From Patulibacter medicamentivorans (GTDB lineage: Bacteria > Actinomycetota > Thermoleophilia > Solirubrobacterales > Solirubrobacteraceae): a stretch of 38,927 nucleotides of DNA. The stretch spans positions 1 through 38,927 of the forward strand of contig NZ_AGUD01000216.1 in assembly GCF_000240225.1 (NCBI RefSeq), read 5' to 3'. This document shows positions 7,658 to 20,669 of the stretch, one piece after another (position 1 is the stretch's first letter; the number at the start of each line of letters is the position of its first letter). Made by a program: the position numbers and the translations under genes. The notes beneath the pieces were generated by a model. The model was not told the DNA's origin. It searched no databases and was given only the letters and a program-made list of their open reading frames with translations.

Positions 7658-8359
7658 GTGGGCAACCCGCTCGAGACGGGGCAGATCGAATGGCGCGGGC
7701 GCGTGCGCCTCGTCGACGAGGTGACCGACGTGCTGCGCGAGCGCATCTACGCCGGCGTCTACGCCCCCGGGGCGGCGCTCCGGCAGGAGCAGCTGGCCGC
7801 CGACCTGGACATCAGCCGGACCCCCCTGCGCGAGGCGCTGCGGGTGCTCGAGAGCGAGGGGCTGGTGCGCAGCGAGCCCGGGCGCGGCGTCCGCGTCGTC
7901 TCGGTCGACGCGCGCACCCTGCTCGCCGGCTACGAGGTTCGGGAGGTGCTCGACGGCCTGGCCGCGCGGCTCGCCGCCCGCCGTGCCGAGGCCCGCGACC
8001 TGGCGGTGCTCGAGGCGCACCTGGACGATCAGCGAGCCGCGCTCCAGGAGCCGGACATCGGCACCTATACGCGGGCCAACGTCGCCTTCCACACCGCGAT
8101 CGTCGACATCGCCGGCAACGACTTCGTCGTCGCGCAGCTGTCGCTGATCCCGCTGACCGCCCAGGTCTTCACCCCGGCACGGCGGATCGCGTTCGACCGC
8201 GTGCGCACGTCCGTCGCCGAGCACGAGGCGATCGTCGCGGCGATCGCCGCCGGTGACGAGGACGCCGCCGAGTCCGCCGCGCGCGCCCACATCCGCGTGA
8301 CCATCGACCAGCTCGCCGCGAGCGTGGCCGACGACCCCGAGAAGGACCCCCTCCGATGA
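7658..8359 (+). CDS. GntR-family regulator, FadR/FCD type
   Basis: A 233-residue DNA-binding regulator. The N-terminal winged helix-turn-helix covers about residues 17-80 (LRERIYAGVYAPGAALRQE, then DISRTPLREALRVLESEGLV, the typical GntR recognition helix). The FCD effector domain covers about 90-225 and includes the metal/ligand histidines in NVAFHTAIV, AEHEAIV and ARAHIRV. FCD regulators usually sense a small organic acid or a catabolic intermediate and repress the linked operon. The GTG start at 7658 follows an AGGGAGAGAG ribosome-binding site. The stop overlaps the hyuA start in ATGA (8356-8359). The operator repeat at 7605-7637 implies that it controls itself and the whole downstream operon. 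Confidence 0.92.
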   Translation: MGNPLETGQIEWRGRVRLVDEVTDVLRERIYAGVYAPGAALRQEQLAADLDISRTPLREALRVLESEGLVRSEPGRGVRVVSVDARTLLAGYEVREVLDGLAARLAARRAEARDLAVLEAHLDDQRAALQEPDIGTYTRANVAFHTAIVDIAGNDFVVAQLSLIPLTAQVFTPARRIAFDRVRTSVAEHEAIVAAIAAGDEDAAESAARAHIRVTIDQLAASVADDPEKDPLR

Positions 8360-10461
8360 GCACCCTGCTGGTCGCCTCCGACATCGGCGGCACGTTCACC
8401 GACACCGTCACGATCGACGCCGACGGCGAGATCGGCCGCTACAAGGCCCCGACCGTCCCCGACGATCCCGCGCAGGGCGTCCTGGCCACGCTCGAGCTGG
8501 CCGCCGACGAGCGCGGGCAGGACCTCGCCGAGCTGCTGCGCAGCGTCTCGCTGTTCGCCCACGGCACCACCGTCGCCACCAACGCGATGCTCGAGGGCAA
8601 GCGCGCGACCGTCGGCCTGATCCAGACCCGGGGCTTCGGCGACACGGTCCCGATCATGCGCGGCTTCAAGTCGCTCGGACTCGACGAGGACGCGATCAAG
8701 AGCTTCCGCTCGCTGGTCAAGCAGGAGCTGGTCGTGCCCAAGCGGCTGATCGGCGAGGTCACCGAGCGCGTCGACTACCGCGGGCGCGTGATCCTGCCGC
8801 TCGACGAGCAGGACGTCCGGGCGACCGTCCGCCGCCTGCGCGACGCCGGCGCCGAGACCTTCGCCGTCTCGCTGCTGTGGTCGTTCAAGAACGACGCCCA
8901 CGAGCGGCGGGTCGCCGAGATCGTCGCCGAGGAGGCGCCGGACGCGCTGGTCTCGCTGTCCAGCCAGCTGCTGCCGCGGATGGGCGAGTACAAGCGCTCG
9001 GTCACGACCGCGCTCAACGCCAGCCTGCGCCCGGTCGTCCGCCGCGCCGTCCGCAGCCTCGACGGTCGCCTGCGCGACGGCGGGATGCGGACCGAACCGC
9101 TGCTGATGCAGTCCGGCGGCGGGCTGACGCCGATCTCGGAGATCGACGAGCAGGCCGCCTCGACGGTGATGTCCGGTCCGGTCGGCGGCGTCGTCGCCTG
9201 CCAGTACTACGGCGACCTCGACGGCCAGCGCAACATCGTCGCGACCGACATGGGCGGGACCAGCTTCGAGGTCGGCCTGATCCTCGACGGCGAGGCGCAC
9301 ATCGCCAACTCGACCTGGGTCGGCCGCCACGAGATCGCCCTGCCCTCGGTCTCCGTCCGCACGGTCGGCGCCGGCTCGGGCTCGATCGCGTCGGTCTCCG
9401 GCGGGCTGCTGCGCGTCGGGCCCGAGAGCGCGGGCGCCGTCCCCGGATCGGCCTGCTACGGCCGCGGCGGCACCCGCCCGACGGTCGCCGACGCCGACGC
9501 GGTGCTCGGCTACCTGAACCCCGACAACTTCCTCGGCGGGCGGCTGAAGCTCGACGTCGAGGCCGCCCGCGAGGCGATCCGGATCCACGTCGCCGAGCCG
9601 CTCGGGCTCGGGATCGAGGAGGCGGCGGAGGGGATCAAGACGATCGTCGACGCCCGGATGGCCGACCTGATCCGGGCCGCCACGATCGAGCAGGGCTACG
9701 ACCCGGCCGACTTCGCCCTCTACGCCTACGGCGGCGCCGGTCCGACGCACGCCTTCTCCTACGGTCGCGAGCTCGGCATCGGCACGATCGTCGTGCCGCT
9801 GACGGCATCGGTCCACTCGGCCTTCGGCGTCGCCGCCGCGGACCTGATCGCGACCGAGGAGCTGTCGGACCCGATCCTCAGCCCGCCCGGAACCGTCGAC
9901 CACGCCGCGGCGCTCGACCCGGCCGGCGTCCAGGCGCGCTTCGACAAGCTCAGCGCGGCCGCGACCGCGCGGCTCGAGCGCGCGGGCGCGGCCCCCGAGG
10001 CGATCCGTCTGACCCGCGTCGCCGAGATGCGCTTCCGGTTCCAGATCAACGAGCTGTCGGTGCCGATCCCCGACGGGCCGATCGACGCCGACACCATCCG
10101 GGCGCTGGTCGCGCGCTTCATCGAGAGCTACGAGGCGCGCTTCGGCGAGGGCTCGGCGTTCGAGGCCGCGGGGATCGAGATGACCACCTTCCGGGTCGTC
10201 GGCCGCAGCCCGGCCGCGCGCCCGACGCTGCGGACCTTCGATCCGGGGGCCGCGGCGGCGGCGGAGGAGACGACGCGGGCGATCTTCTCCGACGGCGCGT
10301 GGCGCGACGCCCGCGTGCTGCGTCACGAGGCGCTGCGGCCGGGACTGGAGATCGACGGCCTCGCCGTCGTCGAGATGAAGGACACCACCATCGTCGTCGG
10401 CGACGGCCAGCGGGCCTCGGTCGACGATCGCGGCAGCCTGGTCATCCGGCTGGCGGCCTGA
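8356..10461 (+). CDS. hyuA: Hydantoinase/oxoprolinase-family ATPase subunit HyuA
   Basis: A 701-residue subunit of the ATP-dependent hydantoinase / 5-oxoprolinase / acetone carboxylase superfamily. The N-terminal ASDIGGTFTDTV (residues 7-18) is the phosphate-1 loop of the ASKHA-type fold. GTTVATNAML follows at about residue 72, a second nucleotide motif is DMGGTSFEVGLI at about 298, and YGGAGPTHA lies near residue 458. The subunit activates its substrate with ATP while the partner HyuB completes catalysis. The length is typical of HyuA. It overlaps gntR by 4 bases and is 21 bases from hyuB. The family alone does not fix the substrate: hydantoins, lactams such as caprolactam, 5-oxoproline or ketones are all possible. 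Confidence 0.9.
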   Translation: MSTLLVASDIGGTFTDTVTIDADGEIGRYKAPTVPDDPAQGVLATLELAADERGQDLAELLRSVSLFAHGTTVATNAMLEGKRATVGLIQTRGFGDTVPIMRGFKSLGLDEDAIKSFRSLVKQELVVPKRLIGEVTERVDYRGRVILPLDEQDVRATVRRLRDAGAETFAVSLLWSFKNDAHERRVAEIVAEEAPDALVSLSSQLLPRMGEYKRSVTTALNASLRPVVRRAVRSLDGRLRDGGMRTEPLLMQSGGGLTPISEIDEQAASTVMSGPVGGVVACQYYGDLDGQRNIVATDMGGTSFEVGLILDGEAHIANSTWVGRHEIALPSVSVRTVGAGSGSIASVSGGLLRVGPESAGAVPGSACYGRGGTRPTVADADAVLGYLNPDNFLGGRLKLDVEAAREAIRIHVAEPLGLGIEEAAEGIKTIVDARMADLIRAATIEQGYDPADFALYAYGGAGPTHAFSYGRELGIGTIVVPLTASVHSAFGVAAADLIATEELSDPILSPPGTVDHAAALDPAGVQARFDKLSAAATARLERAGAAPEAIRLTRVAEMRFRFQINELSVPIPDGPIDADTIRALVARFIESYEARFGEGSAFEAAGIEMTTFRVVGRSPAARPTLRTFDPGAAAAAEETTRAIFSDGAWRDARVLRHEALRPGLEIDGLAVVEMKDTTIVVGDGQRASVDDRGSLVIRLAA

Positions 10462-19590: not shown

Positions 19591-20669
19591 GCGCGCCGGG
19601 GCAGACGCTGCGGATCGCTGTCGTCCGCGGCGACGGCGTCGGGCCGGAGGTGGTCGACGCGTCGCTGCCGGCGATCGTCGCCGCCGCCGCGGTCGACGGC
19701 GTCGCGGTCGTCCTGACCGAGCTGGACTGGGGCGGCGACCGGCAGATCCGGACAGGCCGCGCGATGCCCGACGACGCGCTCGACGTCGTTCGCCGTCACG
19801 ACGCGATCCTGTTCGGTGCGATCGGCCATCCCGACCTCGATCCGGCGGAGTCGGTCTGGAGCCTGGTGCTGCCGTTGCGCAAGGGGCTGGAGCTGTACGC
19901 GAACCTGCGGCCGGTGGTCGGCTGGGAGGGGCTGTCGACGCCGGCGCGCGACGGGGCCAAGGTCGACTTCCTGGTCGTCCGGGAGAACACCGAGGGCGAG
20001 TACTCCGGGATCGGAGGCCGGACCCATCGCGGAACGCCGCTCGAGGTCGCGACCGAGGTCGCGATCCACTCGCGGCCGGCGATCGAGCGGATCGCCCGCT
20101 GCGGGTTCGGCCACGCGCGCGAGCGCGGCCAGACCCTGACGCTGGCGACGAAGTCGAACGTCAACCGCCACGGCTACGGCCTCTGGGACGAGGTCGTCTT
20201 CGCGATCGGCGAGCGGGAGTTCCCGGACGTGGCGCTGGAGAAGATGTACGTCGACGCGCTGGCGACGCGGATGGTCGCCCGGCCGGAGTCGCTCGGCGTG
20301 GTGCTCTGCGGGAACCTCTTCGGCGACATCCTGTCCGACCTGGGAGCGCCGTTCGCCGGCGGCCTCGGGATGGCCCCGAGCGCGAACGTCGCACCGGATC
20401 TGGACGTCCCCGGCTTCTTCGAGCCGGTCCATGGATCCGCGCCGGACATCGCGGGTCGCGGGATCGCCAACCCGCTGGCGACCGTCCTCTCGGGGGCGAT
20501 GCTCCTGCGCGAGAACGGCTGCCCGCGCGGTGCCGACGCCCTCGAGCGGGCGGTCGCGGCCACGGTCGCCGAGGGCAGCGCCCGGACGCGCGACCTGGGC
20601 GGTGTCGCGACGACCGGCGAGGCCGGCGCGGCGGTGCTCGCCGCGCTGGGCGACGCGGTTCCCGCCTAG
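19587..20669 (+). CDS. Beta-decarboxylating dehydrogenase (tartrate/isopropylmalate type)
   Basis: A 360-residue member of the isocitrate/isopropylmalate dehydrogenase family, which oxidises a 2-hydroxyacid with loss of CO2 using NAD and a divalent metal. GDGVGPEV (15-22) starts the fold, the substrate arginines lie in PLRKG and NLRPV (R98, R108), RENTEGEYSGIGGR follows, and the metal aspartates lie in YVDALATRMV and NLFGDILSD. The wording around residues 78-110 is closer to tartrate dehydrogenase/decarboxylase-like proteins than to housekeeping LeuB or Icd. It is the last gene of the operon. The GTG start overlaps the ALDH stop in GTGA (19587-19590). A catabolic rather than leucine-biosynthetic role is inferred from the neighbours. 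Confidence 0.9.
   Translation: MSAPGQTLRIAVVRGDGVGPEVVDASLPAIVAAAAVDGVAVVLTELDWGGDRQIRTGRAMPDDALDVVRRHDAILFGAIGHPDLDPAESVWSLVLPLRKGLELYANLRPVVGWEGLSTPARDGAKVDFLVVRENTEGEYSGIGGRTHRGTPLEVATEVAIHSRPAIERIARCGFGHARERGQTLTLATKSNVNRHGYGLWDEVVFAIGEREFPDVALEKMYVDALATRMVARPESLGVVLCGNLFGDILSDLGAPFAGGLGMAPSANVAPDLDVPGFFEPVHGSAPDIAGRGIANPLATVLSGAMLLRENGCPRGADALERAVAATVAEGSARTRDLGGVATTGEAGAAVLAALGDAVPA

What the first reader, a model, noticed from the sequence alone, without database searches (positions are those of the whole stretch)
7658..20669. Candidate undescribed uptake-and-oxidation pathway built around a HyuAB-AcxC enzyme
Seen: a regulator, an ATP-dependent HyuA/HyuB-type enzyme with an extra zinc module, a ribose-class importer with two permeases, an SDR, an ALDH and a decarboxylating dehydrogenase, all on one strand with overlapping ends. 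Established: each family is known singly. Inference: together they import a small polar compound and convert it to a central metabolite, with one ATP-dependent carboxylation or ring-opening step and later oxidations. I know of no described pathway with exactly this set; that is a statement of memory, not a search.
Basis: inference. Interest (0 to 1): 0.8.

Follow-up and report, generated by a model that had tools for sequence, protein, structure and literature searches.

The report
Candidate vitamin B5 (pantothenate) breakdown operon
A ten-gene set in an actinobacterium looks like an import-and-breakdown pathway that feeds a 2-oxo acid to neighbouring oxidation genes, and it best fits the old, gene-less pathway by which bacteria eat vitamin B5 (inferred, not tested at the bench).

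Summary
In detail: GntR-FCD regulator, HyuA, HyuB with a C-terminal zinc module, ribose-class (CUT2) importer with two permeases, SDR, ALDH and an isopropylmalate/tartrate-type decarboxylating dehydrogenase, on one strand with mostly overlapping ends. The zinc module has the AcxC/Apc-gamma fold and is fused to HyuB. (1) A 2-oxoacid dehydrogenase operon abuts the cluster; such genes lie beside it in 5 of 7 loci that hold the whole oxidation core (5 of 10 of all loci read), including a Bacillota MAG. (2) In genome G072, same genus, the core GntR-SDR-ALDH-dehydrogenase has no HyuAB and no CUT2 importer: an M20 deacylase and an oligopeptide importer stand in their place. So the core is SDR-ALDH-dehydrogenase, and HyuAB-gamma most likely does an amide hydrolysis, although its architecture is that of a ketone carboxylase. 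Hydrolysis, alcohol oxidation, aldehyde oxidation and oxidative decarboxylation to a branched 2-oxo acid is the classical bacterial breakdown of pantothenate (pantoate, aldopantoate, 3,3-dimethylmalate, 2-oxoisovalerate), for which my literature searches found no genes. Confidence in pantothenate itself is a little under one half; in the general chemistry it is higher. No bench evidence.

The parts
7658..8359 (+). GntR/FCD transcription regulator
   Evidence: Pfam GntR 65.4 bits, FCD 96.9 bits; relatives of 51-75% identity next to the core in L015, L016, L017, L019, L029, L097; none found in L028
8356..10461 (+). HyuA-like ATP-binding subunit (alpha)
   Evidence: Hydant_A_N, Hydantoinase_A, Hydant_A_C; phosphate motifs DIGGTFTD and DMGGTSF kept, adenosine motif GxxPGP reads GAVPGS (sequence); solved relatives N-methylhydantoinase, ApcC, CapA, AcxB at 389-349 bits
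10483..12705 (+). HyuB-like metal subunit (beta) with fused C-terminal zinc module (gamma, about residues 625-740)
   Evidence: Hydantoinase_B 376 bits; CapB metal ligands D41/H99/D102/H124 align to D52/H109/D112/H134 (read by me from the alignment, ligands from PMC8453981); gamma fold like AcxC/Apc gamma
12746..13828 (+). CUT2-class (ribose-type) solute-binding lipoprotein
   Evidence: Peripla_BP_4 140.9 bits; best solved relative 4pe6 by sequence and by fold; motif SNNYM(G/A)N(E/Q)WRPQM in 5 of 5 aligned
13893..15404 (+). CUT2 importer ATPase (two ABC domains)
   Evidence: ABC_tran, 2 stretches
15401..16387 (+). CUT2 permease 1
   Evidence: BPD_transp_2 87 bits
16384..17406 (+). CUT2 permease 2
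   Evidence: BPD_transp_2 119.4 bits
17396..18208 (+). SDR; proposed pantoate 4-dehydrogenase (inference)
   Evidence: adh_short_C2 218.8 bits; relatives of 54-82% in L015-L019 and L097
18205..19590 (+). Aldehyde dehydrogenase; proposed aldopantoate dehydrogenase (inference). Start may be 18208
   Evidence: Aldedh 506.7 bits
19587..20669 (+). Iso_dh-family decarboxylating dehydrogenase; proposed 3,3-dimethylmalate dehydrogenase (inference)
   Evidence: Iso_dh 305.2 bits; differs from the other Iso_dh copies shown and from TDH in the substrate helix
20714..22129 (-). 2-oxoacid dehydrogenase E2
   Evidence: 2-oxoacid_dh, lipoyl and E3-binding domains
22110..23078 (-). 2-oxoacid dehydrogenase E1 beta
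   Evidence: Transket_pyr + Transketolase_C
23080..24189 (-). 2-oxoacid dehydrogenase E1 alpha
   Evidence: E1_dh 196.9 bits
24209..25246 (-). Glu/Leu/Phe/Val-family amino acid dehydrogenase, first gene of the E1-E2 operon
   Evidence: ELFV domains; NCBIfam best ScyB 238 bits, cut-off 600; Leu/Val specificity is inference
25402..25884 (+). Lrp/AsnC-type regulator divergent from the E1-E2 operon
   Evidence: recognised from its translation, not scanned; the counterpart in L098 is AsnC by Pfam

Best explanation
A catabolic operon for pantothenate (vitamin B5) or a close pantoyl amide. The GntR regulator senses the compound; the CUT2 importer brings it in; HyuAB-gamma, using ATP (and, as in caprolactamase, perhaps bicarbonate), cleaves the amide to D-pantoate and beta-alanine; the SDR oxidises the primary alcohol of pantoate to aldopantoate; the ALDH makes (R)-3,3-dimethylmalate; the Iso_dh-family enzyme oxidises and decarboxylates it to 2-oxoisovalerate; the adjacent 2-oxoacid dehydrogenase, taken to be a branched-chain one, turns that into isobutyryl-CoA. 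Shown by sequence: the genes, their families, recurring linkage, the gamma fold, the neighbouring E1/E2 genes, and the replacement of HyuAB+CUT2 by M20+Opp in G072. Inferred: every substrate and product.
For: (a) SDR, ALDH and a beta-decarboxylating Iso_dh enzyme in one run of genes are the three enzyme classes that pantoate catabolism needs, each used once; gene order follows the proposed reaction order in the window. (b) E1/E2 genes of a 2-oxoacid dehydrogenase lie next to the cluster in 5 of 7 loci with the full oxidation core: window, G078, G072 (both sides), G614 (E1 alpha alone, 12 bases before HyuA), G615 (E3 and E2, convergent); not in G182 or G084. Chance expectation 0.11 loci; 5 of 7 about 2e-8, or 9e-5 with the genus counted once, 2e-3 for the four lineages outside the genus alone. 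G078 has 4 Transket_pyr matches in all; judged by frame length three are transketolase, DXS and OGDH types, so the E1 beta beside the operon seems to be its only one. (c) In G072 an M20 deacylase plus Opp importer stands where HyuAB plus CUT2 stand in the window, M20 being an amide hydrolase family; G078 carries both HyuAB and M20, the M20 82.5% identical to that of G072. (d) L029 has the same enzyme classes with distant SDR (37%) and Iso_dh (45%) members, i.e. perhaps recruited separately. (e) Weak: the substrate helix has V or I where TDH and LeuB have L, and the K loop has V, A or I where TDH has G (6 operon copies; L029 lacks the W of the other five).
Against: The gamma module is published as present in Acx and Apc carboxylases and absent from hydrolases (PMC5214803 section 7), and the window HyuB lies outside the hydrolase clade (CapB, N-methylhydantoinase, L003, L082; 100/100). 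The known pantothenase of Pseudomonas is, as I recall, ATP-independent; a linear amide does not need ATP. CUT2 binding proteins usually take neutral sugars or polyols. Branched-chain specificity of the E1/E2 genes is inferred: the best-scoring NCBIfam models are pyruvate dehydrogenase and succinyltransferase ones, all below cut-off (window E1 beta 319.2 bits against 321; E1 alpha 228 against 411; E2 312.6 against 423), and the window E1 alpha finds no solved chain at 1e-40. Two of 7 core loci lack adjacent E1/E2, and 5 of all 10 loci read. No beta-alanine aminotransferase was noticed beside the operon, but I did not search for one. In G615 the operon's Iso_dh gene is the only one found in the genome and might be the biosynthetic LeuB. 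Pantoate is a choice among hydroxy acids of the form HOCH2-CRR'-CH(OH)-COOH.
Confidence: 0.45

Rival explanations
1. HyuAB-gamma is a true ketone carboxylase (Acx-like, alpha plus beta-gamma fusion). The importer or the SDR supplies a small ketone, which is carboxylated with ATP and bicarbonate; SDR, ALDH and the Iso_dh enzyme process the product.
For: Gamma module and published family criteria; tree position outside the hydrolases; NQYGE/NQY and FGGYP/MGGYP stretches shared with Acx; distant gamma-bearing relatives sit in ketone-type surroundings: L020 with what looks like acetoacetyl-CoA synthetase and thiolases (by eye), Mycobacterium branderi L083 about 3 kb from a 2,4'-dihydroxyacetophenone dioxygenase family gene.
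Against: No CoA ligase, CoA transferase or thiolase in the operon; a later decarboxylating dehydrogenase would undo the carboxylation; G072 has the same core with an M20 hydrolase and no HyuAB.
Confidence: 0.2
2. Same chemistry on another hydroxy acid: a lactone or amide of 2,4- or 3,4-dihydroxybutyrate or of a tetronate is opened, oxidised to D-malate or tartrate, and the Iso_dh enzyme makes pyruvate or hydroxypyruvate/glycerate; the E1/E2 neighbour is then a pyruvate dehydrogenase.
For: Best NCBIfam match is tartrate dehydrogenase TTC (355.5 bits, cut-off 470.4); the E1/E2 genes score best, below cut-off, against pyruvate dehydrogenase models; alcohol dehydrogenase-ALDH-TTC modules without HyuAB exist, e.g. 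a Cereibacter sphaeroides plasmid beside a sugar ABC importer and, with an iron-type alcohol dehydrogenase named by eye, G140; CUT2 fits a polyol-like ligand.
Against: The window E1-E2 operon carries an amino acid dehydrogenase of the Glu/Leu/Phe/Val family and an Lrp-like gene, which points to branched-chain acids; substrate helix and K loop differ from TDH, and G614 keeps a separate TDH-like copy (L078).
Confidence: 0.19
3. The substrate is pantolactone or panthenol rather than pantothenate: neutral pantoyl compounds fit a CUT2 protein, and HyuAB-gamma opens the ring or cleaves the amide.
For: CUT2 ligands are usually neutral; pantothenates degrade to pantolactone and beta-alanine under conditions that include high or low pH (PMC13415447 passages), and L028 bears the record title 'CF.Solf.bin.16', which I take to mean a solfatara; AI-2 receptor LsrB, with a five-membered ring ligand, is among the fold relatives.
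Against: Lactone hydrolysis needs no ATP; M20 (G072) suggests an amide; LsrB is only one of many similar fold hits.
Confidence: 0.1
4. No single pathway: a loosely joined set of transport and oxidation genes whose closeness to E1/E2 genes is inherited or coincidental.
For: Few loci; three of the seven are one genus; importer genes come and go; degenerate copies in L018 and L019.
Against: Four-base overlaps of SDR-ALDH-dehydrogenase; other E1/E2 arrangements in a Bacillota MAG and another actinomycete; chance figures.
Confidence: 0.06

Closest known systems
Bacterial pantothenate degradation (Goodhue and Snell 1966, Nurmikko 1966, Airas 1979; seen only as citations in PMC9426600 and PMC10393543; pathway steps recalled)
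   Same: Hydrolysis to pantoate + beta-alanine, alcohol oxidation, aldehyde oxidation, oxidative decarboxylation to 2-oxoisovalerate: the enzyme classes match one to one.
   Different: No genes found to compare with; the entry enzyme here is ATP-dependent HyuAB-gamma or M20, whereas the Pseudomonas pantothenase is, as recalled, ATP-independent.
Caprolactamase CapAB (6yra) and N-methylhydantoinase (7hk5)
   Same: HyuA/HyuB families, ATP phosphate motifs, D-H-D-H metal tetrad of CapB.
   Different: They have no gamma module and form their own clade that excludes the window HyuB.
Acetone carboxylase AcxABC (5m45) and acetophenone carboxylase Apc (5l9w)
   Same: alpha, beta and a zinc gamma module; gamma fold match.
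   Different: Gamma is fused to beta; no CoA-activation or thiolysis genes; decarboxylating dehydrogenase downstream.
Tartrate dehydrogenase / D-malate dehydrogenase and 3-isopropylmalate dehydrogenase (PF00180)
   Same: Family, conserved Arg, Tyr and Lys motifs.
   Different: Substrate helix and K loop unlike the references shown; below all NCBIfam cut-offs shown.
bkd (branched-chain 2-oxoacid dehydrogenase) operons with an Lrp-type regulator (recalled from Pseudomonas)
   Same: Amino acid dehydrogenase-E1a-E1b-E2 with divergent Lrp-like gene in the window.
   Different: Placed tail to tail with the pathway operon; substrate specificity not shown by sequence.

Membership tests
Hydantoinase/ketone carboxylase superfamily | HyuA with DxGGTxTD and DxGGT phosphate motifs; HyuB with D-H-D-H metal tetrad | tested here: met
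   ligand list from PMC8453981. The third motif, GxxPGP, reads GAVPGS
ATP-dependent hydrolase branch (Hyd/Cap) | two genes only, no gamma subunit (PMC5214803 section 7) | tested here: not met
   gamma fold at HyuB C-terminus
ATP-dependent hydrolase branch (Hyd/Cap) | HyuB groups with CapB and N-methylhydantoinase | tested here: not met
   tree of 20 rows, hydrolase clade of 4 rows 100/100 without the window; long branches, few references
Acetone/acetophenone carboxylase | gamma subunit with four Cys | tested here: met
   C662, C665, C707, C710; Foldseek hits 5m45_C, 5l9w_C
Acetone/acetophenone carboxylase | beta subunit groups with Acx or Apc | tested here: inconclusive
   not resolved (75/88 and 75/85)
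Acetone/acetophenone carboxylase | ketone- and bicarbonate-dependent ATP use giving a beta-keto acid | not testable with these tools
   needs enzyme assay
Pantothenate degradation pathway | one alcohol dehydrogenase, one aldehyde dehydrogenase, one beta-decarboxylating hydroxyacid dehydrogenase together | tested here: met
Pantothenate degradation pathway | amide-hydrolysing first enzyme | tested here: inconclusive
   HyuAB-gamma in the window; M20 deacylase in its place in G072
Pantothenate degradation pathway | activity on pantothenate, pantoate, aldopantoate, 3,3-dimethylmalate | not testable with these tools
   no assay; no sequenced reference enzyme found
3-isopropylmalate dehydrogenase LeuB | PE-x-GLL substrate helix; score over NCBIfam leuB cut-off | tested here: not met
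   VWSLVLPLR; 251.3 bits against 353.2
Tartrate dehydrogenase TTC | score over NCBIfam cut-off 470.4; TDH-type K loop | tested here: not met
   355.5 bits; K-S-N-V instead of K-S-N-G
Branched-chain 2-oxoacid dehydrogenase (neighbouring operon) | score over a curated branched-chain model | tested here: inconclusive
   no branched-chain model among the hits at 1e-20; pyruvate dehydrogenase and succinyltransferase models below cut-off
CUT2 (ribose-class) ABC importer | Peripla_BP_4 binding protein, double ABC ATPase, BPD_transp_2 permeases | tested here: met
   fold relatives of the binding protein

The most novel reading that the evidence does not exclude
HyuAB-gamma is a third branch of the hydantoinase/ketone-carboxylase superfamily: an ATP- and bicarbonate-using amide hydrolase on a carboxylase-type alpha/beta-gamma scaffold, acting on vitamin B5; and the operon with its M20 and Opp variants supplies the missing genes for the pantothenate-degrading activities EC 3.5.1.22, 1.1.1.106, 1.2.1.33 and 1.1.1.84.
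Probability: 0.31. Interest if true: 0.8.

Novelty: new variant of a known kind. Interest (0 to 1): 0.6.

Why it matters
Pantothenate breakdown was worked out biochemically decades ago, but I found no sequences for its proteins: a 2007 survey lists EC 1.1.1.84 and 1.2.1.33 in its table of validated orphan activities (PMC1940265 Table 5, passages), and a 2023 paper states that the identity of pantothenase is currently unknown (PMC10393543, passage in its discussion). This operon turns that gap into four defined enzyme assays and one binding assay. It also tests whether the gamma module really marks carboxylases, a criterion published for annotating this enzyme family (PMC5214803 section 7).

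Tried and rejected
Tartrate or threonate pathway: not first choice because of the substrate helix and the E1/E2 neighbours; kept as a rival. Acetol, acetoin, dihydroxyacetone or 1,2-propanediol through a ketone carboxylase: thought through; each makes the Iso_dh step remove the carboxyl just added; kept only as a general rival. Search of plasmids for the window HyuB at E 1e-100: no match. Plasmid HyuA relatives (24 records, best 44.7%): 4 regions opened (the unannotated one read as ORFs); none carries SDR-ALDH-Iso_dh. 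Plasmid Iso_dh relatives (586 records, all below 60% identity): 8 regions opened; aldehyde dehydrogenase next to the TTC gene in three and, by eye, in the unannotated Arthrobacter one; none shows SDR-ALDH-Iso_dh. Plasmid relatives of the binding protein (17 records, listed identities 29-37%): 3 regions opened; mixed contexts, no ligand lead. Rfam: no match in the window at gathering score, so no RNA switch of a known family. Phylum sample: 1 of 396 genomes, the window's own, matches the HyuB profile at 1e-180, so the clade is rare. First HyuB tree held three badly extracted rows (L001, L002, L004) and was discarded; it was rebuilt without them and without the truncated L019. Iso_dh copies: one search lists 21 matches in 6 genomes, 6 of them the operon copies; of the 15 others I gave 11 to (not L073, L074, L077, L079) and 8 were shown (L070, L072, L076 did not pass my text filter); a twelfth given, L064, is the L029 operon copy itself. 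The chance estimate uses 7 loci; left out were L018 and L019 (no Iso_dh gene; no E1/E2 hit in the 20 kb read) and G140 (Iso_dh 57%, only weak SDR and ALDH matches near it, no E1/E2 hit), so against all ten loci the figure is 5 of 10. In that estimate I entered 6 for G614 (its PF00676 count) rather than 7 (PF02779), counted every PF02779 protein as a candidate, and for G615 the adjacent genes are E2 and E3, not E1 beta.

Full report
What is there. The window lies in a 5.09 Mb draft genome (contig C138) whose family includes Conexibacter and Solirubrobacter strains (family members G182 and G196 hold contigs of the same length as the records of L024 and L026). Ten genes run on the plus strand from 7658 to 20669: GntR/FCD regulator, HyuA, HyuB, CUT2 binding protein, ATPase, two permeases, SDR, ALDH and an Iso_dh-family dehydrogenase. 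From the ATPase on, every junction overlaps by 4 or 11 bases.

The zinc module. HyuB carries about 115 extra residues with CxxC...CxxC. Pfam does not call it Acetone_carb_G, but a pairwise BLASTP with the annotated 'acetone carboxylase subunit gamma' of Natronosalvus gives 27% over 89 positions, E 2e-5 for that single comparison, and the AlphaFold2 model finds AcxC and Apc gamma chains as its five best PDB hits. So the module is a fused gamma. In the four more distant relatives L020-L023 the module is kept but the cysteines are gone.

Recurrence. HyuB relatives of 65-86% identity occur in 8 loci, the window included: the full set in the same order in window, L016/L024 (Conexibacter sp. CPCC 205762) and L017/L027; in another order in L029 (Actinomycetes MAG, all ten classes) and L028 (Bacillota MAG, all but the regulator); without the CUT2 importer but with oligopeptide importer and M20 deacylase in L015/L058 (G078); decayed in L018/L025 (HyuA-HyuB-SDR) and L019/L026 (GntR, HyuA start running into HyuB, SDR, ALDH). 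The clade is rare: 6 loci in the scan of the GTDB species genomes (two exact peptide patterns), 1 of 396 in a phylum sample at 1e-180, 9 of 146 in the family at 1e-200, the distant relatives included.

On the other strand, ending 44 bases from the last operon gene, lies amino acid dehydrogenase-E1a-E1b-E2 with a divergent Lrp-like gene. In G078 an E1a-E1b-E2 set lies on the other side, divergent from the Opp genes; judged by frame lengths its E1b is the only one of that genome. In G614 an E1a gene is the first gene of the operon, its best solved relatives being the Thermus-type 2-oxo acid dehydrogenase 1um9 and human BCKDH, with pyruvate dehydrogenase E1 close behind (213, 190 and 185 bits; source organisms recalled); a set that reads as E3-E1a-E1b-E2-LipA-LipB (E3, LipA and LipB named by eye) lies on the same contig upstream. 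In G615 E3 and the C-terminal part of E2 converge on the operon's end; another contig starts with the N-terminal part of an E2 followed by E1b and E1a. That makes 5 of 7 loci with the whole oxidation core, against 0.11 expected, or 5 of all ten loci read. Curated models do not say which 2-oxo acid these complexes take: the best NCBIfam hits are pyruvate dehydrogenase and succinyltransferase models, below cut-off. Branched chain is inferred from the amino acid dehydrogenase, the Lrp-like genes.

The natural experiment. A search with the operon's Iso_dh profile found it in 6 of 232 genomes of the order at 1e-125. One, G072, is of the window's genus and has no HyuB match at 1e-150 or 1e-200. Its locus reads E2-E1b-E1a, then Opp binding protein, two permeases, ATPase, M20 deacylase, GntR, SDR, ALDH, Iso_dh, then a second E2-E1b-E1a with a divergent Lrp, and two amidase-signature genes; tblastn at 1e-8 finds no HyuA or HyuB in the 38.7 kb read. 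HyuAB and CUT2 are replaced by M20 and Opp. M20 enzymes of this type are N-acyl amino acid deacylases (best solved relatives: succinyl-diaminopimelate desuccinylases). The simplest reading is that the entry step is an amide hydrolysis giving the hydroxy acid that the SDR takes, and that HyuAB-gamma does the same job elsewhere. G078, which has both, leaves open that they act on different bonds or compounds.

What the chemistry must be (inference from established family chemistry). An Iso_dh-family enzyme makes a 2-oxo acid from HOOC-CH(OH)-CRR'-COOH. An SDR and an ALDH before it can supply one of the two carboxyls from a primary alcohol, so the hydroxy acid is HOCH2-CRR'-CH(OH)-COOH or the arrangement with the two ends exchanged. 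If the complex after it is a branched-chain one, R is alkyl. Pantoate is the natural compound of that shape that I know, pantothenate its natural amide, and the resulting series is the one described for Pseudomonas in 1966 (steps recalled; the papers were seen only as citations). The substrate helix of the dehydrogenase differs from those of tartrate dehydrogenase and LeuB, and 5 of the 6 genomes searched keep other Iso_dh copies; in G615 the operon copy is the only match.

The tension. By the published criteria (PMC5214803, section 7 read) gamma means carboxylase, and my tree puts the window HyuB outside the hydrolase clade without placing it with Acx or Apc. Against carboxylation stand the G072 replacement, the lack of any CoA-activating or thiolytic gene in the operon, and the self-cancelling carboxylation and decarboxylation. 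Caprolactamase itself needs bicarbonate (PMC8453981, passages and part of one section), so a gamma-bearing hydrolase is not absurd. I give hydrolysis about three to one over carboxylation.

Literature status. Searches of the held library: pantothenate+pantoate+hydantoinase+dehydrogenase, 0 papers; names of the pathway's enzymes and intermediates, 31 papers, 30 listed, of which I opened one (PMC10393543, passages), which says that the pantothenase protein is unknown; sole carbon source combination, 47 papers, 15 listed, none opened; EC numbers, 6 papers, with two of the four numbers in a table of validated orphans; degradation phrases, 8 papers, three opened by passages; the gene combination, 4 papers, none holding 'hydantoinase'. 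'No genes known' therefore means not found in these searches of open-licence papers.

Noticed in passing
L020 (G160:C62:2000-21900), 11033-15311: Sister HyuAB (48-51% to the window) whose gamma module lacks the cysteines, beside genes that look like acetoacetyl-CoA synthetase, thiolases, a zinc alcohol dehydrogenase and a ribose-class permease: probably a ketone carboxylase cluster with its own CUT2 importer. Named by eye.
   Followed up: partly
L080, 9007-17587 (Niveispirillum cyanobacteriorum plasmid): HyuA and a HyuB with fused gamma, followed by three hydrolases, an extradiol-dioxygenase-like gene, an aldolase-like gene and a TonB receptor (named by eye); looks like an aromatic ketone cluster. 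The stretch has no gene annotation.
   Followed up: partly
L081, 8992-13308 (Natronosalvus halobius plasmid): HyuA, HyuB and a separate 93-residue gamma gene in a haloarchaeon, with E1/E1 beta and lpdA genes 3-6 kb away.
   Followed up: no
L089 (Azospirillum sp. B510 plasmid), 4978-11531: argE-type M20 deacylase, hydroxypyruvate reductase, cupin, ALDH, tartrate dehydrogenase and a second ALDH on one strand, with a hydantoinase-family gene 3.7 kb away on the other: a partial parallel to the M20 form of the operon.
   Followed up: no
L019 (G196:C9), 12464-14449: The start of HyuA (about 40 residues by eye) runs in frame into HyuB: a large internal deletion; SDR and ALDH kept, dehydrogenase and importer missing.
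   Followed up: no
L098, 5551-10316 and L015, 4426-9104: Two amidase-signature proteins (Pfam Amidase in L098) with what look like Tat signals beside the M20 forms of the operon, with a small gene between them in both genomes.
   Followed up: partly
L099 (G140:C274), 1-4305: Iso_dh relative (57%) with an Ldh_2-family dehydrogenase, an iron-type alcohol dehydrogenase (by eye) and an ALDH: the same three-step logic with another alcohol dehydrogenase.
   Followed up: partly
L055, 4969-11609 (G614): E3-E1a-E1b-E2 followed by lipoate synthesis genes, its E1a about 17 kb before the lone E1 alpha that heads the Bacillota copy of the operon.
   Followed up: partly
L030 (Cereibacter sphaeroides plasmid), 1248-10862: Zinc alcohol dehydrogenase, ALDH, tartrate dehydrogenase, aldolase and sugar kinase after a sugar ABC importer: looks like a polyol or sugar-acid module.
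   Followed up: no
window genome G000: Seven Hydantoinase_B matches in one genome (C131, C159, C343, C350 twice, C348 and the window).
   Followed up: no
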